A stretch of DNA of 64,000 nt. Source: Malaciobacter marinus (GTDB lineage: Bacteria > Campylobacterota > Campylobacteria > Campylobacterales > Arcobacteraceae). The stretch is from assembly GCF_003544855.1 (NCBI RefSeq), contig NZ_CP032101.1, positions 62,001 to 126,000 of the forward strand, in the 5' to 3' direction. How positions within the stretch are numbered: position 1 is the first letter of the stretch; each line of letters opens with the position of its first letter. The notes under the pieces are model-generated. The model was not told the origin of the DNA and searched no databases. It was given only the letters and a program-made list of their open reading frames with translations. Below are positions 33,494 through 47,420 of this stretch, one piece after another. Position numbers and translations under genes: made by a program.

Positions 33494-33522
33494 TAAAAGT
33501 CTTCAATTAAGAAGACTTTTTA
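33494..33522 (-). terminator. Terminator of the cus operon
   Basis: TAAAAGTCTTC and GAAGACTTTTTA pair around a 6-nt loop and overlap the cusA stop codon. On the minus strand the stem is followed by a T-rich run. Confidence 0.75.
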
Positions 33523-36500
33523 GACAGAAATATTAGTTTCTAAAATTTTATCTGTTTTTTTAAGAGCTAATATAAAAAATATTGCTGGAATAACTATAAG
33601 TGTTAAGAATGCTGAAGATATCATTCCTCCAATCATAGGTGCAGCAATTCTTTGCATTACTTCACTTCCCACACCATTTATATACATAATAGGTATAAGT
33701 CCACCTAAAATAGCAAATAAAGTCATAAGTTTAGGTCTTAATCTTAAAACGGCACCTTTAAAAACTGCATGAAAGATATGCTCTTTTGTAAACTTTATAC
33801 CTTTATTTTTAAGTTCAAGCATTGCTTCATGTAAATATACAAGCATAACTATTGAAGTTTCAGCTGCAACTCCAAGTAATGCAAGAAATCCTACAATAAC
33901 TGCGATTGAAATATTGAAGTTTAAATACTCTAAATAAAATACTCCTCCTGTTAATGCAAAAGGAAGTGTAAAGAAGATAATTAGTGTATATGTGATATTT
34001 CTTAATGCAAAATAGATTAAAATAAATATAATCATCAAAGTAAAAGGAATAATATATGTAAGTCTTTGCATAGCAGATTCTAAATATTCACTTTGACCTG
34101 CCCATTCAAAAAAGTAACCACTTGGTAGCTTTATCTCTTCTAAAAGCTCTTTAGCACCATCCTTATACTCTTTCGCACTAACCCCACTTTTAGGTGTAAT
34201 ATATATAAAGTTTACATTTAAAGCTTTTTCTGATTTTATAACAGATGGCCCCTCTTCATATTTTAATTTTGCAAATAGTTTTAAAGGTTGAAATCCAAGT
34301 TTTGTTTTAATTTGAAGATTTTCTAAACTTGCAATATCTTCTCTTTGTGTTGTTTCATATCTTAAACTAATAGGATATCTTTCTAAATCTTTATAGAAAG
34401 TAGAAACTTCTGCTCCACTTACACCAAAAGAGATAGTATTTAATACATCATCTTTTGTAATAGAGTATCTTGATAACATTTTATCATCGATTTTTATATT
34501 TAAATAATATCCAGAGTTTATTTTATCAGATGATACTGCAAGAGTTTTATCATATTTTTTTAATTTTTGCTCAATTTTAAGTGCTACATTTTCCAATGTT
34601 TCATGGTCATTTCCATATAATTTTATTCCAAGTGGAGTTCTAATCCCTGTTAAAAGCATATCTATTCTTCCTCTAATAGGATAAGTCCATGAATTAGTAA
34701 GTCCAGCAATTCTTAGTTTTTCATCCATTTCTTGCATAAGTTTTTTATATGTCATGCCTTCTCTCCACTTCTCTTGTGGCTTTAAAGTTATAATTGTTTC
34801 AATCATTGCAAGTGGAGCAGGGTCAGTTGCTGTGTCTGCTCTTCCTGCTTTTCCAAATACAGTTTCAACTTCAGGGAAAGATTTCAGAATTTTATCTGTT
34901 TTTTGAGTTAACTCTTTTGATAAATCAATTCCAAGTCCATAAGGAGTTACAGGCATATACATAAAAGTTTGCTCATTCATCATTGGCATAAATTCCCAGT
35001 TTTGTTTTTTATAAACAGGGTATGCTAATATTATAGTTGCTAAAAATAGGGCTACAATTACATATCTAAATCTAAGTGAGAGTTTTAAAAGTGGTGAATA
35101 AAGCTTTACAAAGAATCTATTTAGTATATTTTTGTCTTCACTTAAAATCTTGCCTTTTATAAAAAATATCATTAAAATAGGTACCACTGTAATTGATAAA
35201 ATAGCTCCACTAACCATCGCAAAAGTTTTTGTAAATGCAAGGGGAGTAAATAATCTTCCCTCTTGTCCTGTTAATGCAAAGATTGGTAAAAAAGATACAA
35301 CAACTAAAATTAAAGCAAAGAAAATAGGGCGACCTACTTGTTTTGCTGATTTTATAATAATTTCAATCCTTTGTTTATTTGAAATATCTTCTTTTCCTTG
35401 TAAATGTTTATGGGCATTTTCTACCATTACAATAGTTGCATCAACCATAGCTCCAATTGCTATTGCAATACCACCTAAACTCATAATATTTGAACCCATT
35501 CCAAATATCTTCATAAACAAAAAAGTTAAAAGTACAGTAATAGGAAGAGTAATTATTATAATTAATGCAGATCTTGCATGAAATAAAAATAAAGCAGTAA
35601 CTACCATTACTATAATAGACTCTTCTATTAATGTAGATTTTAAAGTATCAATGGCTTTATCAATTAGTGAGCTTCTATCATATGTCTCAACTACTTCAAC
35701 TCCATCAATTTTAAGTGTTTCAATCTTTTTTTTCACATTTTTAATTACTTTATATGGATTCTCTCCATACCTTACAACTACAATACCACCAACAGTTTCA
35801 CCTTGACCGTTTAAATCAGCCATTCCTCTTCTACTTGCTGAACTTATATTAACACTTGCAATATCTTTTATTTTTAAAGGGATATTATTTTGAGTTTTTA
35901 TAGTGATATTTTCAATATCATAAACACTTTGTAAATAGCCTTTTGCTGTAATTAAGTGTTCATAACCATTCTCTAAGATTATTCTTCCACCTTTGTCATT
36001 ATTGCTTTTTTCAAGGGCTTTTTTTATCTCGTCAATACCTATATTGTATTGCACCATTTTATTTTGATTTAAAGTAATTTCATAATTTTTTATAAATCCA
36101 CCAATTGAAGCAATTTCACTAACTCCATCTACACCTAAAAGTGCAAATTTATAGTAATAATCTTGTAATGTTTTTAGCTCATCTAAACTTTTTGTATCAG
36201 ATTTTAATGCATACTCATAAGCCCAACCAACACCAGTTGCATCTGGACCAATAGTTATTTTTGCATTTGAGGGAAATTCCCCTTGAAGTTGAGATAGTTG
36301 CTCTAATATTCTGTTTCTTGATTCATAAAGGTCTGTATTATCTTTAAAAATTATATAAATTAATGCATTTGAAAAAGAACTCATAGCTCTTACTGTTTCA
36401 ATATTTGGCAAACTCATCAAGTTTGATATAAGAGGATATGAAACTTGCTCTTCAATTGTCTTAGGACTTTGTCCTGCCCATTCTACTTGTACAATTACTT

Positions 36501-36636
36501 GAGGAGGAGATAAATCAGGCAAGGCATCTAAACTAGTATTTTTAACTGCCCAAAATGAACCTAATGTTAATATTATAATAGAAAAAAGTACTAGAAATTT
36601 GTTTTTTATACTATATGAGATTATATTTTCAACCAT
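33520..36636 (-). CDS. cusA: Heavy-metal efflux RND pump, CusA type
   Basis: The 1038-residue HME-type RND transporter has 12 membrane helices and two large periplasmic loops. The three methionines that carry Cu(I)/Ag(I) through E. coli CusA (M573, M623, M672) have counterparts at about M561 (YMPVTP), M611 (APLAM) and M660 (RIDM), with the same spacing of 50 and 49 residues. The proton-relay aspartate is in IGAMVDATIVMVENAH. It exports monovalent copper or silver across the outer membrane with CusB and the TolC-like protein encoded upstream. It is the last gene of the operon from 41067. Confidence 0.95.
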   Translation of the reverse strand: MVENIISYSIKNKFLVLFSIIILTLGSFWAVKNTSLDALPDLSPPQVIVQVEWAGQSPKTIEEQVSYPLISNLMSLPNIETVRAMSSFSNALIYIIFKDNTDLYESRNRILEQLSQLQGEFPSNAKITIGPDATGVGWAYEYALKSDTKSLDELKTLQDYYYKFALLGVDGVSEIASIGGFIKNYEITLNQNKMVQYNIGIDEIKKALEKSNNDKGGRIILENGYEHLITAKGYLQSVYDIENITIKTQNNIPLKIKDIASVNISSASRRGMADLNGQGETVGGIVVVRYGENPYKVIKNVKKKIETLKIDGVEVVETYDRSSLIDKAIDTLKSTLIEESIIVMVVTALFLFHARSALIIIITLPITVLLTFLFMKIFGMGSNIMSLGGIAIAIGAMVDATIVMVENAHKHLQGKEDISNKQRIEIIIKSAKQVGRPIFFALILVVVSFLPIFALTGQEGRLFTPLAFTKTFAMVSGAILSITVVPILMIFFIKGKILSEDKNILNRFFVKLYSPLLKLSLRFRYVIVALFLATIILAYPVYKKQNWEFMPMMNEQTFMYMPVTPYGLGIDLSKELTQKTDKILKSFPEVETVFGKAGRADTATDPAPLAMIETIITLKPQEKWREGMTYKKLMQEMDEKLRIAGLTNSWTYPIRGRIDMLLTGIRTPLGIKLYGNDHETLENVALKIEQKLKKYDKTLAVSSDKINSGYYLNIKIDDKMLSRYSITKDDVLNTISFGVSGAEVSTFYKDLERYPISLRYETTQREDIASLENLQIKTKLGFQPLKLFAKLKYEEGPSVIKSEKALNVNFIYITPKSGVSAKEYKDGAKELLEEIKLPSGYFFEWAGQSEYLESAMQRLTYIIPFTLMIIFILIYFALRNITYTLIIFFTLPFALTGGVFYLEYLNFNISIAVIVGFLALLGVAAETSIVMLVYLHEAMLELKNKGIKFTKEHIFHAVFKGAVLRLRPKLMTLFAILGGLIPIMYINGVGSEVMQRIAAPMIGGMISSAFLTLIVIPAIFFILALKKTDKILETNISV

Positions 36637-37648: not shown

Positions 37649-38833
37649 CTATTTTCCTTCATAATAAATAGCTTTTGATAAAGCTGTGAAATATTTTGTT
37701 TTTTCATCTAATGCTGCAATTTTTAAGCTAATTGTTTTATTTAGATTTTGAATAATTTTTGTAGTATTATTTTTAAATCTATTGTTTATATTCAAACTTT
37801 TTTCAATAGCTTTTTGTAATGAAATAATATCTTTTGAAATTAACTCATGATTTTTATAGCTATTATCTAACTCTTTTTGTAAGATTTTGTTTGAAATAAT
37901 AAAGTTTTGTTTTAAAGTTTGTAAATCATCTTTGGTTTTTAAGTATTGTAGTTGTGCTTTTTTTACTTTTATATTTTCTGTATTATAAATTGACAAAGGA
38001 ATAGAAACAGAGACATTTACATAATCTTGAAACTCTCTTCTATTAAAATATGTAGCATTTAATTTAATATCAGATGTTTTAGAAGCCTCTTCAAAAGCTT
38101 CTTGCTGTTTATTTAATCTTAATTGTTGTTGTAAAGCTTTTATTTTAGGGTGATTATCAGATTTTAGTTTAATAAGTTTTTTATTAATTGTAGTATTTAT
38201 ATTTATATCTTTTATATTTTTATATGTTATCTCTTCTAAATTTAATTTAAGTGTTTGGATATTTGTATCTAAATTATTTAATACAATATCAAAACTCTTA
38301 CTTGCAATTTTTGTATCAAATAAGGATTTTACATCTATATTAGAAGTTTGATACTTATAGTTTTGTAGTTTTTCAATTTTGTTTAAATTTTGTTTTTGTT
38401 TTATTATAAAATCTCTTTTTTCTTTTAAAATAGCTATTTTATATGCAAGTTCATAAATCTTTGATTTTAATAATAGCTTTTTATCCTCTAAACTAAGAGC
38501 CAAAATAGTTTTATTTGTGATTTGAATTGATTGATTAATTTCTAGTTTATCAGTTATAGGAATAGCTTGAGTTATCCCTATAGACTGTGCTTGCATTGGT
38601 TCTAAATCTCTTTTGTTATAGTTTTCATTTGTATGAATATCTGTTAAACCTAAAGACAAAGTTGGATTTGAATACTTTGTTGCAAGTAAGATGTTCTCAT
38701 TTGCAATCATAATAGATTTTTCTATACTTTTAAGCTCACTATTTTTCAAAATAGCACTATTTACTAAAGTATCAATGCTATTTGCTGTTAGAGTTGATAT
38801 AAAAAGAGTGATTACAAATAAAAACTTTTTCAT
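37649..38833 (-). CDS. cusC: TolC-like outer-membrane efflux protein, CusC type
   Basis: The 394-residue OEP-family protein has a signal peptide, FLFVITLFISTLTANS, and long amphipathic helices repeated twice, as in TolC channels. YFNRREFQDYVNVSVSIPLSIYN is split here by family-typical beta-strand residues near 265-285. It forms the outer-membrane duct of the CusCBA system. It is somewhat shorter than E. coli CusC (about 460 aa) and shows no lipobox. Its start overlaps the upstream gene by 1 nt. Confidence 0.85.
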   Translation of the reverse strand: MKKFLFVITLFISTLTANSIDTLVNSAILKNSELKSIEKSIMIANENILLATKYSNPTLSLGLTDIHTNENYNKRDLEPMQAQSIGITQAIPITDKLEINQSIQITNKTILALSLEDKKLLLKSKIYELAYKIAILKEKRDFIIKQKQNLNKIEKLQNYKYQTSNIDVKSLFDTKIASKSFDIVLNNLDTNIQTLKLNLEEITYKNIKDININTTINKKLIKLKSDNHPKIKALQQQLRLNKQQEAFEEASKTSDIKLNATYFNRREFQDYVNVSVSIPLSIYNTENIKVKKAQLQYLKTKDDLQTLKQNFIISNKILQKELDNSYKNHELISKDIISLQKAIEKSLNINNRFKNNTTKIIQNLNKTISLKIAALDEKTKYFTALSKAIYYEGK

Positions 38834-39216
38834 TATAAGTTCACGCTTCCTCTTAAAGTATGAACTTCTCCATTAGAAGTTTTAAACTTTAGTTGATATT
38901 GCCATGTTCCACTCATTGATAAATTTACATCTAATTTATATTTATCTCCTACAAGCTTACCTTTATCTTTAAACTCCATATATGGCATACCTGGCATCTC
39001 TGGCATATAAAACTTTATTTTAGTTTTTGCATTAGTGATTTGTTTGCCATCTTTAAAGATTTGAACAAAGAAACTATTTTGTCCAACAACAAGTGATTTT
39101 TCAGATGTAAATTTTACATCATAGCCATTTTTATTTCCAGATTGTGAAATAGGTTCTGCATTTGCAATACCAAATGCTAAGATTAGAATAGAAAAAAGTT
39201 TTAAAAAACTTTTCAT
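38833..39216 (-). CDS. Exported FixH/YtkA-like protein with Met-rich motif
   Basis: The 127-residue protein has a signal peptide (1-20, FGIANA/EP) and a single beta-sandwich domain like FixH/YtkA. The motif FYMPEMPGMPYM puts methionines at 71, 74, 77 and 80, an MxxMxxMxxM array suited to Cu(I)/Ag(I). The final strand is WQYQLKFKTSNGEVHTLRG. AAAGGAG precedes the ATG. As the first structural gene of the efflux operon it may deliver copper to CusB, standing in for CusF; this is inference. Confidence 0.8.
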   Translation of the reverse strand: MKSFLKLFSILILAFGIANAEPISQSGNKNGYDVKFTSEKSLVVGQNSFFVQIFKDGKQITNAKTKIKFYMPEMPGMPYMEFKDKGKLVGDKYKLDVNLSMSGTWQYQLKFKTSNGEVHTLRGSVNL

Positions 39217-39257: not shown

Positions 39258-40463
39258 TTACTGTGCAATTAACGTGGAATTTAAATTTAAAGTAAAAGTT
39301 GTGCCTTTATTTTGTGTAGAATCAACATTTATATCAATATTGTGCTCTTTACATATTGTATATACTATATTTAGACCTATTCCAAATCCCCCTTGAACAC
39401 TATTTGCTCTATAAAATCTTTTGAAAATATCTTTTAAATTTTTTTTATCAATACCTGTACCTGTATCACTTACAATAAATTGATTATTTTTCAAAATAAT
39501 ATCTACTGAACCACCTATTTTATTATATTTTATTGCATTAGAAATAAGATTATTACTTAGTCTAATAAAACTCTCTTTGTCTATAAAAAAAGAAGTTGAT
39601 TCAATATCTGTTGTGATTTGCACTCTTTTTTTTGATGCTAAAGTTGTAAAATACTCTATTTGTTCATTTAAAATTTCATCAATTTTTAAAACCTTTGGTG
39701 ACTCTTTTTTCTTCTCTTCTAAAAATAGATAAATTAGGTCTTTATATATTTCTGAAATTCTTTTTGCACTTAGGTTTATTCTTTGTAAGTTTTTTTCACT
39801 AAGTGATGAACCTTTGCTTGTACACATTAAAATAGCAGTAATTGGGGTGTTTAATTCATGGGTTGTATCTTTTATAAAGTTATTTAATTTTAGCCTTTCA
39901 TTTGTAATAGGTTTAATAAACATCTTTGCAAGATAAAAACCAGTTATAAATAAAAATGCAAAAATTAGTAAAAAGGATATAAAAATCTTCTCTTTTAATT
40001 CAAGTATTTTTTTATGAAAGAAATTCTCTTTAATAACAACATAATTTATTCCTAAATGTCCCAATGCAGAATCATCAATTAAAATAAAACTGTTTCCATA
40101 TTGATTTATCTTTTTTGTAAAATCAATCTTATCTTCAATATTCCCTACAAGTTTTTCATGCTTGTTATTATAAAGTGCAAAATCAAAATCAATATTTTTT
40201 CTAATCTTTTCAGGATTTATTTTTTGATTTGTCATATGTGCATAGATTATGGTTGAAGATATTTTAGAGGCAACACTTTTCATATTTGAAGTTATCAAAT
40301 CATAATATAAGTTTGACTCTACTTTATAAAAAAGCCAAGCAATAATAGTAAGTAAAATAAACGATGAACCAAGATATAGGCTCAAAAATCTAACAAGTGC
40401 AGATTTTTCACTTCTTGTTAAAACTATAACCAACTCCTTTTTTTGTTTGTATATACTCATCAC
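39258..40463 (-). CDS. Sensor histidine kinase of the copper efflux operon
   Basis: The kinase has at most 401 residues: membrane helices near 27-46 and 160-178, a periplasmic sensor loop of about 110 residues, then HisKA with DTTHELNTPITAI (H202) and an ATPase domain with NLISNAIKYN, DTGTGI and GIGLNIVYTI. It is of CusS/ArsS type. The start is uncertain: GTG 40463 or ATG 40460 overlap the regulator by 56 or 53 nt, and TTG at 40433 has AAGGAG directly against it. All the likely starts imply coupling to the regulator gene. Confidence 0.88.
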   Translation of the reverse strand: MMSIYKQKKELVIVLTRSEKSALVRFLSLYLGSSFILLTIIAWLFYKVESNLYYDLITSNMKSVASKISSTIIYAHMTNQKINPEKIRKNIDFDFALYNNKHEKLVGNIEDKIDFTKKINQYGNSFILIDDSALGHLGINYVVIKENFFHKKILELKEKIFISFLLIFAFLFITGFYLAKMFIKPITNERLKLNNFIKDTTHELNTPITAILMCTSKGSSLSEKNLQRINLSAKRISEIYKDLIYLFLEEKKKESPKVLKIDEILNEQIEYFTTLASKKRVQITTDIESTSFFIDKESFIRLSNNLISNAIKYNKIGGSVDIILKNNQFIVSDTGTGIDKKNLKDIFKRFYRANSVQGGFGIGLNIVYTICKEHNIDINVDSTQNKGTTFTLNLNSTLIAQ

Positions 40464-41067
40464 TTAAAATTTTACGAAGATTTTTTATATATGTTCTAAG
40501 TGTTGAAGAACTAGGAGTATCTTCATATCCCCAAACATTAGATATCAACTCTTCATGGGGTATTATTTTATTTGCATTATTTACTAAATAAATAAGTATC
40601 TTAGCCTCTTTTTGTGGAAGATGATGAATAATACCATCATTATTTAAAATTAAATCTTGAGTATTAAAAGTAATATTCTCTTCAATTTGTAAAATATTTG
40701 CATTTATATTAAATATTTTTTTTATATTTTCAATTCTTAATCCTAACTCTTCAAGTTCAAAGGGTTTTTTGATATAGTCATTGCAACCTACATCAAAGCC
40801 TTTTTTCAAATCATCAATTTGATTTAGTGAAGTAATAAAAATAGATGGAGTTGTAATACCCTCATCTCTTAATCTTTTTAAAATTTCAAAACCATTTATA
40901 TTTGGTACATTTACATCTAAAAGTAATAAATCATAGATATTTGAAAATAGATATGATAATGCGTCTTCTCCATCATAAGTTGAAGTTACTTCAAAATCTT
41001 TATTTTCAAGATATTCTGTGATTATTTCATTTAATATAAGGTCGTCTTCTAATAATAGTATATTCAT
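40408..41067 (-). CDS. Response regulator of the copper efflux operon, OmpR-type
   Basis: The 219-residue protein has a receiver with E7-D8-D9, phosphoacceptor D51 and IKKPFELEEL, and a winged-helix C-terminus ending GVGYSFNKK. It is the first gene of the minus-strand operon RR-HK-FixH-like-cusC-cusB-cusA. It is divergent from the bufferin operon, with 116 bp between the two. A paralogue without a kinase lies at 32515. The repeats at 41119-41135 are its most likely site. Confidence 0.92.
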   Translation of the reverse strand: MNILLLEDDLILNEIITEYLENKDFEVTSTYDGEDALSYLFSNIYDLLLLDVNVPNINGFEILKRLRDEGITTPSIFITSLNQIDDLKKGFDVGCNDYIKKPFELEELGLRIENIKKIFNINANILQIEENITFNTQDLILNNDGIIHHLPQKEAKILIYLVNNANKIIPHEELISNVWGYEDTPSSSTLRTYIKNLRKILSDEYIQTKKGVGYSFNKK

Positions 41068-41183: not shown

Positions 41184-41765
41184 ATGAAGTTAACAGCAAA
41201 ATTACTAGCAGGCTTATTTTTAGCAGTGGGATTATTAAATGCAACGCCTTACTCTTTAGATAAAGCACATTCAGAAGTAGGTTTCTCGGTTAAGCATCTT
41301 ATGATTACAAAAGTAAATGGTCAGTTTAAGAAGTTTGATGCGAATATAGATTTTGATTCTAAAACAAAAGTTTTCAAATCATTAAACGCAACAATAAAAA
41401 CAGAATCAATAGATACAGGTATTGAAAAAAGAGATAATCACCTAAGAAGTGCAGATTTCTTTTTAGCAAAAAAATATCCAGAACTTAAATTTGTTATGAA
41501 AACTTATATTAAAAAAAGTGATGACGAAGGTGTTATGATTGGTGACTTGACAATAAGAGGAATTACAAAAGAGGTTAAATTAGAAGTTGAAATTGGTGGT
41601 ACAATCAAAGACTTAGAGGGAAATAATAGAGTAGGGTTTTCACTTGAGGGAGAGATTAATCGTACAGATTTTGATTTGAAATGGAATAAAGCTTTAGAGT
41701 TTGGTGGAGTAGCTGTTAGTGAAAAAGTTGAATTAGAAGTTGAAGCTCAAGCAGTAGAAAAGTAG
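41184..41765 (+). CDS. YceI-family periplasmic protein
   Basis: The 193-residue protein has a signal peptide, KLLAGLFLAVGLLNA, cut before TPYSLDKAHSEVGFSVKH, which is the YceI N-terminal motif (PF04264). The family folds as a lipocalin-like barrel that binds isoprenoid lipids such as polyprenyl chains or quinones. GAAGGAGAC precedes the ATG. It is the first gene of the bufferin operon and ends 14 nt before bufA. Its role with a copper peptide is unknown. Confidence 0.92.
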   Translation: MKLTAKLLAGLFLAVGLLNATPYSLDKAHSEVGFSVKHLMITKVNGQFKKFDANIDFDSKTKVFKSLNATIKTESIDTGIEKRDNHLRSADFFLAKKYPELKFVMKTYIKKSDDEGVMIGDLTIRGITKEVKLEVEIGGTIKDLEGNNRVGFSLEGEINRTDFDLKWNKALEFGGVAVSEKVELEVEAQAVEK

Positions 41766-41779
41766 TTTAAGGAAAAAAC

Positions 41780-42100
41780 ATGAGAAGTAATACAAAATTA
41801 AAACTAGCAGGTATGATGCTAGGAGCTGCTCTTACATCAACAACAGCAGTTGCTGCAAGTAGTGGTTCTTGTGGCGCTGGCAAGTGTGGTGGCGATATGA
41901 AGAAAGTAGAGAAAAAAGGCTCATGCGGTTCTGGTAAATGTGGAGCTGATATGCAAAAAGAGATGAAAGGTTCTACTGGTTCTGCTAAATGTGGTGGTGA
42001 TATGAAAAGCAATGACATGAAAAATGACATGCACAACAATAGTATGAAAAAAGATAAAAAAGTTACTGGTTCTTGTGGTTCTGGTAAATGTGGAAGCTAA
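41780..42100 (+). CDS. bufA: Cys-rich bufferin/HvfA-like RiPP precursor
   Basis: The 106-residue protein has a signal peptide (about 1-26, TSTTAVAA) and a low-complexity mature part. It has four repeats: C31GAGKC36GGDM, C49GSGKC54GADM, T66GSAKC71GGDM and C99GSGKC104GS. The third has lost its first Cys and the GK pair. Met and His residues fill the linkers. In HvfA and bufferins, GKCG-type cysteines are oxidised by an MNIO enzyme to thio-oxazole or oxazolone groups that bind copper. Here Ala or Ser replaces the usual Glu of EGKCG. The MNIO gene follows after 13 nt. Without that context it could pass for a metallothionein-like protein. Confidence 0.88.
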   Translation: MRSNTKLKLAGMMLGAALTSTTAVAASSGSCGAGKCGGDMKKVEKKGSCGSGKCGADMQKEMKGSTGSAKCGGDMKSNDMKNDMHNNSMKKDKKVTGSCGSGKCGS

Positions 42101-42113
42101 CTAAGAGTTTTGT

Positions 42114-42935
42114 ATGACTAAATTGAAGGGGTGTGGATTAGGTCTAAGAAGTGATTTTTTATTAGATTTAAAACATAACAATTTCTCACCTGATTGGTGG
42201 GAAGTTACTCCTGAAAATTGGATGCATATGCCAAGGGTTTATGAAAAAGCCTTTGAGCAAGAAGTATTCTCAAAACCTACCGTTGCCCATGGATTATCAC
42301 TATCAATTGGTTCTATTGATAAATTAAATAAAGAGTTTGTTAAAAAGATAAAAGAGTTCTTAGATAGATATAATATTGAGTTTTATTCTGAACATCTTAG
42401 TTTCTCATCATTAAATAATATGCAAACATATGAGCTTTTGCCTTTGCCTATGACAAAAAGAATGGTAAATATTATAAGTGATAGAGTAAAAGAGGTTGAG
42501 GATATAATTCAAAGAAATTTAATCTTAGAAAATGCCACATATTACTTAATACCTTATGCAAATATGCGTGAAGTTGACTTTATAAATGAAGTATTGGAAA
42601 AATCAGGTGCTAAAATGCTTCTTGATGTAAATAATGTATTTGTAAATTCAGTAAATCACTCTTTTAAAGCAAGAGATTTTATCGACCAAATTGACAAAAG
42701 TAAAATTGCATATATGCATATAGCAGGACACTATTTTGATGAGGAGTCAAATCTTAGAATAGATTCTCATGGCATGCCAATTTGTAGTGGAGTTTGGAAA
42801 CTTTTAGAGTATACTTTAAAGCAAATAAATGCCCCTGTGATGATAGAAAGGGATAATAATATTCCACCATTAAGTGAGCTTGAAAAAGAGTATCTGCACA
42901 TGAAAAACATAGTAAAAGAAGTTCAAAATGGCTGA
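42114..42935 (+). CDS. bufB: MNIO-family (DUF692) RiPP-modifying iron enzyme, BufB/HvfB type
   Basis: The 273-residue TIM-barrel protein of DUF692 (PF05114) has metal-ligand candidates spaced as in the multinuclear non-haem iron oxidative enzymes: H59 (VAHGLSLSIG), E93-H94 (SEHLSF), E139-N140 (LENATYY), D171 and N174 (LDVNNVFVN), H202 and H206 (HIAGH), D217 and H219 (DSHG), E245 (IERDNN). It would modify cysteines of the BufA precursor with oxygen before export. It overlaps the partner gene bufC by 8 nt. Confidence 0.92.
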   Translation: MTKLKGCGLGLRSDFLLDLKHNNFSPDWWEVTPENWMHMPRVYEKAFEQEVFSKPTVAHGLSLSIGSIDKLNKEFVKKIKEFLDRYNIEFYSEHLSFSSLNNMQTYELLPLPMTKRMVNIISDRVKEVEDIIQRNLILENATYYLIPYANMREVDFINEVLEKSGAKMLLDVNNVFVNSVNHSFKARDFIDQIDKSKIAYMHIAGHYFDEESNLRIDSHGMPICSGVWKLLEYTLKQINAPVMIERDNNIPPLSELEKEYLHMKNIVKEVQNG

Positions 42936-43620
42936 TTTAGAAAGAGATATACAAGAAAATTTTATTAATATTGTTACAAAAGATAATAAAAAAGAGATCT
43001 CTTCAAAATATAAAGTTTATCAAAAGTTAGTTTACTATAGATATGAAGAGATTATAAAAAATAGTTTTTTAGAGTTTAAAAAGTATATTAGTGAAAAAGA
43101 GTTAGAAAACTCAATAAAAAAGTTTCTAAAAGAGCCTTGCACTACAGAGTTTGTTTGGCAAATTGCAAATGATTATAGAAAGTTTGTAAAGAAAAACAGA
43201 CTATTTCATGATAGAAAATATCTTTATGAACTTTTGTATTTTGATTGGATTGAGATTGAACTAGCTATGCAAGAGTACAAAATAGAAGAGTTAAAAGAGT
43301 TTCATTATGAAAATAGCTATAAACTTTCAAATAGTGCAAGACTTAAGAAATTTAACTATGATATTTTAAATGCAAATATAGAAAAAAAAGAAGAGAATTT
43401 TGCAATTATTTATTATGATTTTAAAGATGATGAGGTTAAGTATAGACAAATAAACCCAGTGATATTTTATCTTTTACGAAAAATAGATAAAACTAAAAAT
43501 ATTCAAAGCCATCTTTTAGAACTATGTTTTGAAAATGATATAGAGTTTCAAGAAGCAAAAGATGTTTTGTTTGAGCCTTTAAGTGAGTTATTTCATAATA
43601 GAATCTTCGAATCTAAATAA
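42928..43620 (+). CDS. bufC: DUF2063-type partner protein, BufC/HvfC
   Basis: The 230-residue mostly helical protein follows the MNIO gene with an 8-nt overlap. The N-terminal half (ERDIQENFINIV to about 95) matches the DUF2063 (PF09836) putative DNA-binding/partner domain, which presents the precursor to the MNIO enzyme in characterised systems. Sequence conservation is low here and the call leans on gene order. There is no signal peptide, so it acts in the cytoplasm. Confidence 0.8.
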   Translation: MADLERDIQENFINIVTKDNKKEISSKYKVYQKLVYYRYEEIIKNSFLEFKKYISEKELENSIKKFLKEPCTTEFVWQIANDYRKFVKKNRLFHDRKYLYELLYFDWIEIELAMQEYKIEELKEFHYENSYKLSNSARLKKFNYDILNANIEKKEENFAIIYYDFKDDEVKYRQINPVIFYLLRKIDKTKNIQSHLLELCFENDIEFQEAKDVLFEPLSELFHNRIFESK

Positions 43621-43670: not shown

Positions 43671-45107
43671 ATGCAAAAGAACAATAATTTTTTAACAATT
43701 TTAAATAATCTTCCTGAAATCATTATTCTAGTAGTAAAAAACGACACAATAATTGATTCCTTTGGGCAGATAAAAGAGAAGTTTAATAATAGCAAATTAT
43801 ATGAACATTTTAGTAAAGTAACTTATAATAAACTTTTATTATTAAAATCAAAAAATATAGATAACTTGACTATATATTGGAATAGTAAAGATTATGAAGT
43901 TTCATATTTTGATGATACATATTACTTCAAAGATGTTACAAAGTATAGGAATTTATATTTAGAATTAAAAAAAAGTCTTAGAGATTTAAGGTCTAAAAAA
44001 GAAGAACTTCATGCAGTTTTTGATTTAGCAGGAAATGGTATCTCTATTTTAAATGAAGAGGGTACTTTTCTTTATGCAAATAAATTTTTTCAAACAATGA
44101 TGGAGTATTCAATGGAAGAGTTATACAATGAGTCTTGTATATCTTTATCCTCTCCTGAATATGCACAGCCTAGTAAAAGTGCAGTACAAAGAGCTATTGA
44201 GGAAGGGATTGTTGAAAGATTTAGGAAAATATGTGTTACAAAATCAGGTAAAAAAATCAATGCTAGTATGTCTTTAAGTTATATTAAAAGTACAAATGAA
44301 ATTGTGATGATTACTTCTGATATTACTTCTGATGTAAAATATCAAGAAGATTTAAAAAGAAGAATAAACAAAGAAGTACAAAGAAGAACTAAACAATATG
44401 AAATCATGTGTCATCAATCAAGACTTGCTTCAATGGGAGAGATGATTGAATCAATTGCGCACCAATGGAGACAACCTTTAAATAGTCTTGGAGTTATTGT
44501 TCAAGGTTTAAAACATTTAAACAATAGTGAAAATTTTGATTTTGATTTGTTAAATGAAATGGAAACAGAGATGATTGAAAAAATCAATTATATGTCTGAA
44601 ACAATTGATGATTTTAGTAATTTCTTTAAAATTTCCAAAGAAAAAAAAAATTTTAATATATTAAATAGTGTAAAAGATACAATCAAACTAATTGATGTTC
44701 AATTAAAAAATGAAAATATAAAAATAAATGTAAATATTGAAGAGGGTGTAAACTTAGAACTTTATAGTTTAGAAAATGAGTTTAGGCAAGCTCTTTTAAA
44801 TATAATACAAAATGCTTTAGATATTTTAATATTAAGAAAACAGTTAAATAGTTTTATTAATATTGATATTATTCAAAATGGAAACTTCACAGAACTTAAT
44901 ATCTCTGATAATGGTGGAGGTATTTGTATGAAAAATATTGAACAAATATTTAGACCCTATGTTACTACAAAAAAACAAGGAAATGGAATAGGTTTGTATA
45001 TGTCAAAAGTGATTATAGAACATAATATGAAAGGAAATTTAACTGTGCAAAATAATCAAATGGGTGCAGTATTTACTATTTCCTTAAAATCAAAAGATGA
45101 AAATTAA
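43671..45107 (+). CDS. Soluble PAS sensor histidine kinase in the bufferin operon
   Basis: The 478-residue kinase has no membrane helix. It has an N-terminal PAS-like region (about 1-90), a second PAS (AVFDLAGNGISILNEEGTFL, about 118-235), the HisKA box SIAHQWRQPL with H264, and an ATPase domain with NIIQNALDIL and GNGIGLYMSK. A cytoplasmic sensor fits redox or intracellular metal signals. It starts 50 nt after bufC on the same strand, and its regulator overlaps it by 1 nt, so it probably belongs to the operon. Confidence 0.9.
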   Translation: MQKNNNFLTILNNLPEIIILVVKNDTIIDSFGQIKEKFNNSKLYEHFSKVTYNKLLLLKSKNIDNLTIYWNSKDYEVSYFDDTYYFKDVTKYRNLYLELKKSLRDLRSKKEELHAVFDLAGNGISILNEEGTFLYANKFFQTMMEYSMEELYNESCISLSSPEYAQPSKSAVQRAIEEGIVERFRKICVTKSGKKINASMSLSYIKSTNEIVMITSDITSDVKYQEDLKRRINKEVQRRTKQYEIMCHQSRLASMGEMIESIAHQWRQPLNSLGVIVQGLKHLNNSENFDFDLLNEMETEMIEKINYMSETIDDFSNFFKISKEKKNFNILNSVKDTIKLIDVQLKNENIKINVNIEEGVNLELYSLENEFRQALLNIIQNALDILILRKQLNSFINIDIIQNGNFTELNISDNGGGICMKNIEQIFRPYVTTKKQGNGIGLYMSKVIIEHNMKGNLTVQNNQMGAVFTISLKSKDEN

Positions 45108-45790
45108 TGGAAAAATTACATACAAAACTACAAGCATTAACTTTATTAATTGTTGAAGATGATGAGAGTACATTAAAATGGCTAGAAAGAATACTCTCAA
45201 TTTATTTTAAAGATGTAAAAGTTGCAAATAATGCAATGGATGCCTTTGCAATATTTAGAAAAGAAGATATTGATGTAATAGTTGCGGATATTCAGATTCC
45301 AGAAGTTGATGGTTTGCATTTGTTACAAAAAATTGCAAGTGTTAAGCCAAGTTGTATCAGAATAGTAATGACAGCTTTTAATAATCATATTTATTTAAAT
45401 AGGGCAATTGATGCAGAAGTGGATTTTTATTTCAAAAAGCCAATAGATATAGATGAGTTATTGGTCTCTATTTCTTTAAGTATAAAAAATCAAAAGAAAA
45501 TTATTGAGAAAATCAAACTAAAAAATAACTATGTATATGATTCTGTACAAAAGATGATAATAAATAAAAATTCAAAAATAAATTTAACAAAAAAAGAGTC
45601 CTTACTATTTGAACTTTTATATGAAAATAGAAACACAATTGTAAGTTTAGAGTATATAGAAAATTCAATTTGGGAAGAACCCACAACTAATGAAGCTATT
45701 AGAATGGTGATTTCAAGTCTTAGAAAAAAGCTTTATGAAAACTCAATCAAAAATATTAAAGGTTTTGGTTATAAACTTTGCATGAGTTAA
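45107..45790 (+). CDS. Response regulator, OmpR-type, in the bufferin operon
   Basis: The 227-residue protein has a receiver with E17-D18-D19, phosphoacceptor D61 (VVADIQIP-like) and FKKPIDIDEL, and a winged helix ending GFGYKLCMS. It is paired with the preceding soluble kinase. The first of three AATCTTA repeats before the sulfide:quinone reductase-like gene overlaps its last codon region, making that promoter a candidate target beside the bufferin promoter. Confidence 0.9.
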   Translation: MEKLHTKLQALTLLIVEDDESTLKWLERILSIYFKDVKVANNAMDAFAIFRKEDIDVIVADIQIPEVDGLHLLQKIASVKPSCIRIVMTAFNNHIYLNRAIDAEVDFYFKKPIDIDELLVSISLSIKNQKKIIEKIKLKNNYVYDSVQKMIINKNSKINLTKKESLLFELLYENRNTIVSLEYIENSIWEEPTTNEAIRMVISSLRKKLYENSIKNIKGFGYKLCMS

Positions 45791-45846
45791 ATCTTATATT
45801 AATCTTACACTAATCTTATTATTTCCTTTTGTTCTTTTGTTAGAAT
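45790..45846 (+). promoter_or_regulatory. Three AATCTTA direct repeats at 11-bp period before the SQR-like gene
   Basis: AATCTTA occurs at 45790-45796, 45801-45807 and 45812-45818, each exactly 11 bp apart and identical. TAGAAT at 45841-45846 is a possible -10. The repeats would sit just upstream of the -35, as tandem sites of an OmpR-type activator do. Confidence 0.65.
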
Positions 45847-45866
45847 TAATTATAAAAGGAGTTTCT

Positions 45867-47057
45867 ATGAAGAAAAAAATTCTTATTGTGGGTGGTGGTA
45901 CTGCTGGTACAATGACTGCAAATAATTTAGCAAGAAGACTGATGCACGAAATTGATAAAGATGAAATAGAAATTACAATGATTTCAGATTCAAAATATCA
46001 TTATTATAGACCTGGTGCTATGTATGTTGCTTTTCACAAAGCATCAGGACATGAATTTGTAAGAGAACAAAAAACTCTTTTAATGCCAGAAATAAATTTC
46101 ATAATAGATAAAGCAATACAGATAAAACCTAATGAAAATTTTGTAAAAGGGGAGAGTGGAACTATTTATAAATATGATTTTGTAGTTCTTGCTACAGGTT
46201 GTGAAGTAGCAGTAGATAGAATTCCTGGATTAAAAGAGGGTGGAAATTGGTTCTATTCATATGATGGAGCAAAAAAGCTAGCAAAAAAGCTTGGGCACTT
46301 AAAAAAAGGAAGAGTTTTAGTAACTGTTAGTTTTCCAAAAACTCCAAATGTTCCTTATCAATGCGGTATTGCACCTGTTGAAACGACGATTATGTTGCAT
46401 GATTATTTAAAAGAACATGGAGTAAGAGAAGATGTTGAGATTATATATACTTATCCAAAAGTTGCACAAAGCATAACAGATGGACTTTTTATGCAAGGAC
46501 CTACTTCTAAAGTTTTACCTTCTATTTTTGATGATATAGGTGTAAAGCATAAAACAAGTTTTACTTTAAACAAAGTTGATCCTGATAAGAAAATTGCTTA
46601 TTCAGAAGAGGGTGAGGAAATTGAGTTTGATATTTTGATGTCAACACCTCCTTTTATTGCAACAAAATTTATAAGAGAATCAGGATTATCAAAAGCTATT
46701 AATGATGAGGGATGGTTACCAACTGATAAAAAAACTTTAAAAGTTAAAGGATATGAGAATATATATACTTTAGGAGATACAGTTGATTTACCAGTTTCAA
46801 AAGCAGGTGGAACAATACATAATCAAACAGATGTTGTTGCTGATAATATTGCCTCAGAGCTTAGATACGGCTATCCAACAGAAACTTATGATGGTAAAGT
46901 AATTGCAATTGCTCAGATGGGATTATCTTGCGGAATGCCACTTTGGTATGATTATGACGAAGATGTAAAACCTACTCCTTGTAGTAAACTTGGGAGTTTC
47001 GTAAGAAAAGGTTTTAATATGGGAATTTATTGGGCAGCAGCTCGTGGAATGGTATAG
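45867..47057 (+). CDS. sqr: Sulfide:quinone oxidoreductase-like flavoprotein
   Basis: The 396-residue FAD-dependent pyridine nucleotide-disulfide family protein starts KKILIVGGGTAGTMTANNL and has a second motif, LGDTVDLPVSKAGGTIHNQ. Cysteines in VPYQCGIAPVE and at the C-terminus (GLSCGM, TPCSKLG) could form the sulfide-oxidising pair. It would oxidise sulfide and reduce quinone at the membrane. I chose ATG at 45867 with AAAAGGAG 7 nt before it; a TTG frame from 45837 lies in the promoter. A DUF1641 gene follows after 9 nt, as often seen. Exact SQR type is not resolved. Confidence 0.85.
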   Translation: MKKKILIVGGGTAGTMTANNLARRLMHEIDKDEIEITMISDSKYHYYRPGAMYVAFHKASGHEFVREQKTLLMPEINFIIDKAIQIKPNENFVKGESGTIYKYDFVVLATGCEVAVDRIPGLKEGGNWFYSYDGAKKLAKKLGHLKKGRVLVTVSFPKTPNVPYQCGIAPVETTIMLHDYLKEHGVREDVEIIYTYPKVAQSITDGLFMQGPTSKVLPSIFDDIGVKHKTSFTLNKVDPDKKIAYSEEGEEIEFDILMSTPPFIATKFIRESGLSKAINDEGWLPTDKKTLKVKGYENIYTLGDTVDLPVSKAGGTIHNQTDVVADNIASELRYGYPTETYDGKVIAIAQMGLSCGMPLWYDYDEDVKPTPCSKLGSFVRKGFNMGIYWAAARGMV

Positions 47058-47066
47058 GAGAAAATA

Positions 47067-47420
47067 ATGAGTGAAAAAGTAGAAGTTTTAAAAACAGAAG
47101 AGATGGAAAAACTTGAAGAGAAGTTCTCAATGCTAATACAAACTGGTAGAATAGATAATCTAATAGATCTATTAGCTGTTATATCAGATAATATTGAGAT
47201 GACAACTGCTCCAATGGTTGATAAAATGATAGGTACAGTAGATAATCTTGCCACTGCAGGTTTTGTAACAGAAAATGCTGTAAGATATGCAAATAGAGAA
47301 ATGAAAAAAAATGAAGTACCATCTTTATTTGGTTTACTTAAACTGTTAAAAGATGAAGAGACAAGAAAAGGCTTAGCTTTTGTTCTTCACTTAACAAAAG
47401 GTATCGGGAAGCAAGTATAG
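47067..47420 (+). CDS. DUF1641 family protein
   Basis: The 117-residue protein is helical and soluble, with FVTENAVRYANREM and a C-terminal DEETRKGLAFVLHLTKGIGK motif characteristic of DUF1641 (PF07849). Members are commonly encoded beside SQR-like or formate dehydrogenase-linked oxidoreductases, but their function is unknown. AGGAGAAAATA precedes the ATG. A bidirectional terminator follows. Confidence 0.85.
   Translation: MSEKVEVLKTEEMEKLEEKFSMLIQTGRIDNLIDLLAVISDNIEMTTAPMVDKMIGTVDNLATAGFVTENAVRYANREMKKNEVPSLFGLLKLLKDEETRKGLAFVLHLTKGIGKQV

What the first reader, a model, noticed from the sequence alone, without database searches (positions are those of the whole stretch)
41780..42100. Bufferin-like RiPP precursor with four CGxGKCG repeats, one degenerate, and no EGKCG glutamate
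The sequence shows four repeats with cysteine pairs (31/36, 49/54, 99/104) and a third copy with Thr in place of its first Cys and Ser-Ala in place of Ser-Gly. Known HvfA/bufferin cores are written EGKCG; here the residue before GKC is Gly preceded by Ala or Ser, and a second Cys precedes it by five. A DUF692 enzyme follows at once, so the product is probably a modified copper-binding peptide with a new core pattern.
Basis: partly seen in the sequence, partly recalled or inferred. Interest (0 to 1): 0.85.

Follow-up and report, generated by a model that had tools for sequence, protein, structure and literature searches.

The report
Glu-less copper-peptide precursor, optional modifying enzymes
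An Arcobacter-family bacterium encodes an exported cysteine-repeat peptide next to the enzymes that turn such cysteines into copper-binding rings; the peptide belongs to a known family, but a third of its close relatives keep the same peptide beside the same copper-efflux genes with no modifying enzyme at all, a natural test of what the modification is for.

Summary
An MNIO (DUF692) gene starts 13 nt downstream, followed by an HvfC/PME1 partner (predicted fold matches 3DEE). It is an HvfA/oxazolin ("Buf_EGKCG") type precursor, not a DUF2282 bufferin. Its 5-residue Cys spacing is that of EGKCGEGKCG; the Glu, and the first Lys of each pair, differ. The Glu-less core is the rule in Arcobacteraceae, so it is a variant, not unique; the degenerate copy is specific to this lineage.

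Not foreseen: 18 of 53 precursor-bearing Arcobacteraceae genomes show no MNIO and no HvfC, yet keep the same GSCGAGKCG repeats, 17 of them at the same place (cus genes, usually yceI, then hvfA, then MATE), under purifying selection. The motif alone does not predict modification. What follows the enzyme is the signal peptide: an LGAAL-like motif in 49/49 MNIO+ versus 7/28 MNIO- Campylobacterota proteins, with about twofold stronger constraint when HvfBC is present.

Best reading: a Cus-linked periplasmic copper buffer whose cysteines HvfBC converts to 5-thiooxazoles before export. The chemistry is inferred, not shown.

The parts
41780..42100 (+). hvfA-type precursor, 106 aa, 7 Cys in four 9-residue units
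   Evidence: NCBIfam NF050137 32.3 bits over cut-off 19.5
41780..41854 (+). Sec-type signal peptide (inferred, residues 1-25, AVA-A cleavage), with LGAAL motif at residues 14-18 (41819-41833) that tracks HvfBC presence
   Evidence: sequence
41864..41890 (+). unit 1 GSCGAGKCG (Cys31, Cys36)
41918..41944 (+). unit 2 GSCGSGKCG (Cys49, Cys54)
41969..41995 (+). unit 3, degenerate, GSTGSAKCG (Cys71 only); intact GSCGAGKCG in the sister species G078
42068..42094 (+). unit 4 GSCGSGKCG (Cys99, Cys104)
42114..42935 (+). hvfB-type MNIO (DUF692), 273 aa; Arg12-Ser13 and Asp247-Asn248 at the places of FonB Arg15-Arg16 and Asp249-Phe250
   Evidence: PF05114 9e-86; alignment to 3bww
42928..43620 (+). hvfC-type partner (PME1/RRE), 230 aa
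   Evidence: NF050145 2e-19 but under cut-off; profile to 3dee 2e-8; Foldseek 3dee 8e-9, TglHI 1e-6
41184..41765 (+). yceI, 14 nt upstream of hvfA on the same strand; a usual neighbour of hvfA with or without hvfBC
   Evidence: PF04264 9e-47
40408..41067 (-). OmpR-type response regulator, divergent from yceI-hvfA; possible metal regulator (inferred)
39258..40463 (-). its histidine kinase
38833..39216 (-). YtkA-domain protein, first gene before cusCBA
   Evidence: PF13115 1e-21
37649..38833 (-). outer-membrane efflux protein (CusC-like)
   Evidence: PF02321
36647..37648 (-). periplasmic adaptor (CusB-like)
   Evidence: PF16576 2e-46; NF007303 CusB 5e-31
33520..36636 (-). CusA/CzcA family heavy-metal RND pump
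   Evidence: TIGR00914 1005.8 bits, cut-off 701.45

Best explanation
hvfA-hvfB-hvfC is a captophorin (oxazolin-type) cluster. HvfC binds the precursor in the cytosol, probably in part through its signal peptide. HvfB then oxidises the Cys of each xG[S/K]CG pentapeptide (seven in this strain) to a 5-thiooxazole. The product is exported by Sec and buffers copper in the periplasm beside the CusCBA efflux pump and YceI. Shown here: gene order, families, the partner's predicted fold, conservation, genomic link to cus. Inferred from characterised relatives: the 5-thiooxazole, copper binding, the order of events. The Glu-less core is a lineage variant of EGKCG that the local enzyme has followed.
For: Precursor hits NF050137 over cut-off. 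MNIO PF05114 9e-86 with the D-x-H and Asn residues kept throughout, the kind of residues that were mutated in HvfB with loss of activity (PMC13419390). Partner fold = 3DEE/NgoC and TglHI. HvfB and HvfC co-occur: 35 of 36 MNIO+ Arcobacteraceae genomes have HvfC and no MNIO- genome does. All seven Cys are followed by Gly; FonBC needed Gly or Ala there, tolerated loss of Glu1 and of Glu11 and position-3 Ala or Thr, and processed non-Pro variants of positions 1 and 2 except Arg at 1. Gene neighbours CusCBA, YtkA, YceI in most relatives. The MNIO's second substrate-facing Arg (FonB Arg16) is Ser in 32 of 36 Arcobacteraceae enzymes, whose cores are Glu-less, and Arg in 11 of 14 other Campylobacterota enzymes, most of whose cores are DGKCG-like.
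Against: No chemistry was measured. Same-motif homologues without any enzyme show that the motif can work unmodified. HvfB, HvfC and HvfA all fall under NCBI's equivalog cut-offs. DoxX, usual in these clusters, is not found beside the genes or in the window. The enzyme/substrate Glu association fails a tree-aware test (about 1.5 pairs for, 1.4 against).
Confidence: 0.72

Rival explanations
1. The repeat protein is in essence a plain thiolate copper buffer of the periplasm, metallothionein-like, tied to the Cus pump. Its Cys pairs bind Cu(I) without modification. hvfBC is an optional upgrade in some lineages.
For: 18 of 53 HvfA+ Arcobacteraceae genomes have no detected MNIO or HvfC; several are single closed contigs (G002, G010, G011, G026, G030, G032). 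PF05114 at E<=0.1 found nothing in the six of these tested, nor in 15 further Campylobacterota genomes with KCG-repeat proteins. Same gene order, same core, pN/pS of cores 0.14. Some enzyme-less copies gained CxC segments (G004, G020); a 21-Cys protein mixes CxC and GSCGAGKCG (L104); a YtkA protein carries MKCGAGKCG (L118).
Against: In the window hvfBC are intact and adjacent, and hvfBC are conserved in 35 related genomes; the enzyme is not decaying. Cys in the periplasm would need protection from oxidation (general knowledge).
Confidence: 0.2
2. The MNIO installs a different modification here, because its substrate pocket differs (Arg16 to Ser, Phe250 to Asn relative to FonB) and the first Cys of each pair is preceded by Ser, not Lys.
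For: Ser13 and Asn248 by alignment; Asn is in all 50 Campylobacterota enzymes examined.
Against: FonB variants at these sites still gave the 305-nm product (PMC13097082); all characterised MNIO-PME1 clusters give 5-thiooxazole (same paper).
Confidence: 0.08

Closest known systems
HvfA/oxazolin (Haemophilus influenzae) and fontiphorin/gonophorin: captophorins, Buf_EGKCG family
   Same: Signal peptide, tandem pentapeptides with Cys every 5 residues and Gly after each Cys, adjacent MNIO and PME1 partner
   Different: xGSCG-[A/S]GKCG instead of EGKCG-EGKCG; no Glu; one degenerate unit; no DoxX beside it; beside CusCBA/YceI; enzyme has Arg16 to Ser and Phe250 to Asn
Bufferin Buf1 (DUF2282) and Buf2
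   Same: MNIO plus PME1, signal peptide, copper role by analogy
   Different: No DUF2282 match, different Cys layout
CxxxxC group of MNIO precursors (Antoine et al. 2025, PMC12452194)
   Same: Cys pairs five residues apart, signal peptide
   Different: That group was described only by its own profile, which was not available here; no Lactamase_B_2 gene among the neighbours named here
Bacterial metallothioneins
   Same: Small, Cys-rich; enzyme-less homologues may act this way
   Different: Exported; Cys pairs spaced by four residues, not CxC/CxxC

Membership tests
HvfA / Buf_EGKCG-oxazolin precursor family | Match to the family's domain model (NF050137) | tested here: met
   32.3 bits, cut-off 19.5
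HvfA / Buf_EGKCG-oxazolin precursor family | Match to the HvfA equivalog model (NF050188) | tested here: not met
   20.7 bits, cut-off 95
HvfA / Buf_EGKCG-oxazolin precursor family | Repeated EGKCG with Glu | tested here: not met
   Units are GS[C/T]G[A/S][G/A]KCG
HvfA / Buf_EGKCG-oxazolin precursor family | Signal peptide | tested here: inconclusive
   K-rich start, hydrophobic stretch, AVA-A by eye; no SignalP run; motif analysis
HvfA / Buf_EGKCG-oxazolin precursor family | Adjacent MNIO and PME1 (DUF2063/RRE) genes | tested here: met
HvfA / Buf_EGKCG-oxazolin precursor family | DoxX gene in the cluster (common, not obligatory) | tested here: not met
   no DoxX hit in the window by tblastn with the L125 DoxX
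Captophorin (5-thiooxazole RiPP) | Cys converted to 5-thiooxazole | not testable with these tools
   needs mass spectrometry/NMR
HvfB family MNIO | MNIO superfamily domain PF05114 | tested here: met
   287.8 bits, cut-off 25
HvfB family MNIO | Equivalog cut-off NF003818 | tested here: not met
   313.4 bits, cut-off 360
HvfC / PME1 partner | Fold of 3DEE | tested here: met
   Foldseek E 8e-9, TM 0.71/0.81, on an AF2 model of mean pLDDT 82.6
HvfC / PME1 partner | Equivalog cut-off NF050145 | tested here: not met
   70.3 bits, cut-off 142
Bufferin Buf1 | DUF2282 domain | tested here: not met
   only a chance hit in Pfam
Plain metallothionein without MNIO | No MNIO in the genome | tested here: not met
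   One MNIO in the window's genome, next to the gene; but met by 18 homologues

The most novel reading that the evidence does not exclude
The same Cus-linked Cys-repeat protein exists in two natural states. Without hvfBC it is an unmodified thiolate copper buffer; with hvfBC it is a thiooxazole metallophore. The enzyme pair was repeatedly gained or lost beneath a conserved substrate, and the substrate's signal peptide (LGxxL motif) is the part that HvfBC reads, so that it drifts once HvfBC is absent.
Probability: 0.4. Interest if true: 0.75.

Novelty: new variant of a known kind. Interest (0 to 1): 0.55.

Why it matters
What thiooxazole modification adds over plain thiols, and how MNIO-PME1 complexes recognise precursors that carry export signals, are open questions in the field (PMC12452194, PMC13097082). 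Closely related species with the same gene at the same place, with and without the enzymes, allow both to be tested by simple gene swaps. The data also warn that a KCG-repeat protein in Campylobacterota should not be annotated as a modified metallophore from its motif alone: 21 of the 40 sampled genomes with such a protein had no detectable MNIO, against 67 of 2,583 in a published survey that used its own profile.

Tried and rejected
Chance repeat: rejected. DUF2282 bufferin: rejected. 'Unique to this genome': rejected. Core-Glu/enzyme-Arg16 coevolution: raw Fisher p 8e-10 but not upheld by independent pairs on the enzyme tree, so kept only as a lead; Asn for Phe250 is phylum-wide and so cannot explain the Glu loss. 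The downstream kinase/regulator/SQR genes (43671-47420) as part of the system: not core, found with hvfBC in the window, G078 and G062 only among the larger stretches examined. Spacer motif EKK after unit 1 as recognition site: 25 of 31 MNIO+ versus 0 of 17 MNIO-, but absent from several MNIO+, weaker than the signal-peptide signal. Promoter/terminator scan: nothing above shuffles. Gain versus loss of hvfBC: the rpoB tree needs 9 changes, at least 6 forced by well-supported branches; the HvfB tree agrees with genus groupings in the main, so loss is likelier than repeated import, but direction is not proven. Papers on Arcobacter plus DUF692 plus copper: none held.

Full report
What is there. 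The ORF at 41780-42100 encodes MRSNTKLKLAGMMLGAALTSTTAVAASSGSCGAGKCGGDMKKVEKKGSCGSGKCGADMQKEMKGSTGSAKCGGDMKSNDMKNDMHNNSMKKDKKVTGSCGSGKCGS. Its units start at residues 29, 47, 64 and 97, and Cys lie at 31, 36, 49, 54, 71, 99 and 104. In pentapeptide register each unit is xGSCG + [A/S]GKCG, the same double pentapeptide as EGKCG + EGKCG of HvfA, with Glu replaced and the first Lys replaced by Ser.

The neighbours. yceI ends 14 nt upstream on the same strand. The MNIO gene starts 13 nt downstream (PF05114, 9e-86) and is the only MNIO of the genome. The partner gene overlaps the MNIO's end; its sequence match to HvfC is real but under the cut-off. A profile of nine relatives finds 3DEE, the gonococcal PME1, at 2e-8, and an AlphaFold2 model (mean pLDDT 82.6) finds 3DEE (E 8e-9) and the TglHI complex by Foldseek. 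On the other strand lie a histidine kinase, an OmpR-type regulator, a YtkA protein and a CusA/CzcA-family efflux system. No DoxX was found in the window.

How common. The family is Arcobacteraceae: G060 and G066 have contigs of the same length and place as records titled Arcobacter sp. BM102 and uncultured Campylobacteraceae. Of 104 genomes (one per species), 36 have the MNIO, 35 HvfC and 53 the precursor (profile A1, E<=1e-5). In MNIO+ genomes the core is almost always xG[S/A]CGAGKCG (137 cores). More distant Campylobacterota mostly use DGKCGAGKCG or similar, and Gammaproteobacteria EGKCGEGKCG. The Glu-less core is therefore a family trait. The Thr66 degeneration is specific to this lineage: G078, of the same genus, has an intact third unit. 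G030 shows a similar loss of Cys in its first unit.

Precursors without enzymes. Eighteen of the 53 genomes have the precursor but no MNIO or HvfC. For six of these, and for 15 further Campylobacterota genomes with KCG-repeat proteins, a PF05114 search at E<=0.1 also found nothing; for the other twelve the absence rests on searches with the window's own MNIO (E<=1e-20) and HvfC (E<=1e-3). Four of the 18 are 76-96% complete, but others are single closed contigs. Seventeen of the 18 stand next to MATE and the cus genes, mostly with yceI, the place where relatives carry hvfA-hvfB-hvfC. On an rpoB tree of 60 genomes, presence of hvfBC needs 9 changes, at least 6 forced by well-supported branches; G019 and G017 (without) are neighbours. 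The enzyme-less genes have pN/pS-type ratios of 0.10-0.41, like the enzyme-bearing ones (0.10-0.21), and keep their Cys while Cys codons change synonymously. They are thus functional genes. This occurs far more often than in a published survey (67 of 2,583 genomes, PMC12452194 Table 3), though the profiles differ.

What changes with the enzyme. The core hardly changes. The signal peptide does: [LIVMA]G[AVTSL][AVTSM][LIVMFA] is found in 49 of 49 MNIO+ Campylobacterota precursors, 25 of 28 gammaproteobacterial ones (one miss is a parsing fault), 7 of 28 MNIO- ones, and 4 of 81 signal peptides of neighbouring YceI, YtkA, CusB and CusC proteins. The pattern was written after seeing the data, and on the tree only four independent contrasts exist on well-supported branches, three in favour and none against for the looser form of the motif, so this is suggestive. 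An independent measure agrees: nonsynonymous change in the signal peptide relative to synonymous change is 0.14 in MNIO+ pairs and 0.32 in MNIO- pairs (permutation of pairs p = 0.03), while the mature part is the same (0.28 and 0.27; p = 0.52). This fits a remark in PMC12452194 that preliminary data implicate the signal peptide of Buf1 in recognition by BufBC.

The enzyme pocket. In FonB, Arg15 and Arg16 flank the substrate Glu and Phe250 touches Lys and Gly (PMC13097082). The window's enzyme has Arg12-Ser13 and Asp247-Asn248 there. Ser is found in 32 of 36 Arcobacteraceae enzymes; the family members with acidic cores keep Arg (G035, G084) or have Thr (G075). Raw association is strong, but a tree-aware test does not uphold it.

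Mechanism. Best supported: cytosolic oxidation of Cys to 5-thiooxazoles by HvfB with HvfC, Sec export, copper buffering beside CusCBA. FonBC tolerates loss of Glu1 and Ala or Thr at position 3, and requires a small residue after Cys; all seven Cys here are followed by Gly. The main uncertainty is that the same protein evidently works without the enzymes elsewhere.

Novelty. A new variant of a known kind. No paper held describes the Campylobacterota members. The interest lies less in the missing Glu than in the natural with/without-enzyme series.

Noticed in passing
L125:6625-9621; L243, L245, L247, L253, L255, L258, L259, L261, L263, L264, L266, L267: In Campylobacterota, KCG-repeat proteins stand upstream of DoxX (PF07681, usually), Gluconate_2-dh3 (PF13618) and a GMC oxidoreductase: 13 of the 30 nearest GMC loci. 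Four such genomes (G085, G129, G342, G364) plus G379 were shown to have no MNIO. A possible MNIO-free partner set for such peptides.
   Followed up: partly
L118 (G339): A YtkA-domain protein, the kind found beside cusCBA, carries an N-terminal MKCGAGKCG segment in a genome without MNIO.
   Followed up: partly
L104 (G059): A second protein of 171 aa with 21 Cys mixes metallothionein-like CxC/CxxC segments with two GSCGAGKCG units.
   Followed up: no
45837-47057: Best NCBIfam match is type III sulfide:quinone reductase, selenoprotein subtype (275 bits, cut-off 525), followed by DUF1641. Whether it is a selenoprotein was not examined beyond noting a TAG stop at its end.
   Followed up: no
L041 (G073): An Arcobacteraceae MNIO cluster with a different Cys arrangement in the precursor (ACAAGKCGKGACG, SSSCGASKCAAGTCGAKG).
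   Followed up: no
41767-42039 (-): A 90-aa open frame lies antisense to hvfA; similar antisense frames recur in relatives, as expected from the repeat's codon use, so it was not treated as a gene.
   Followed up: no
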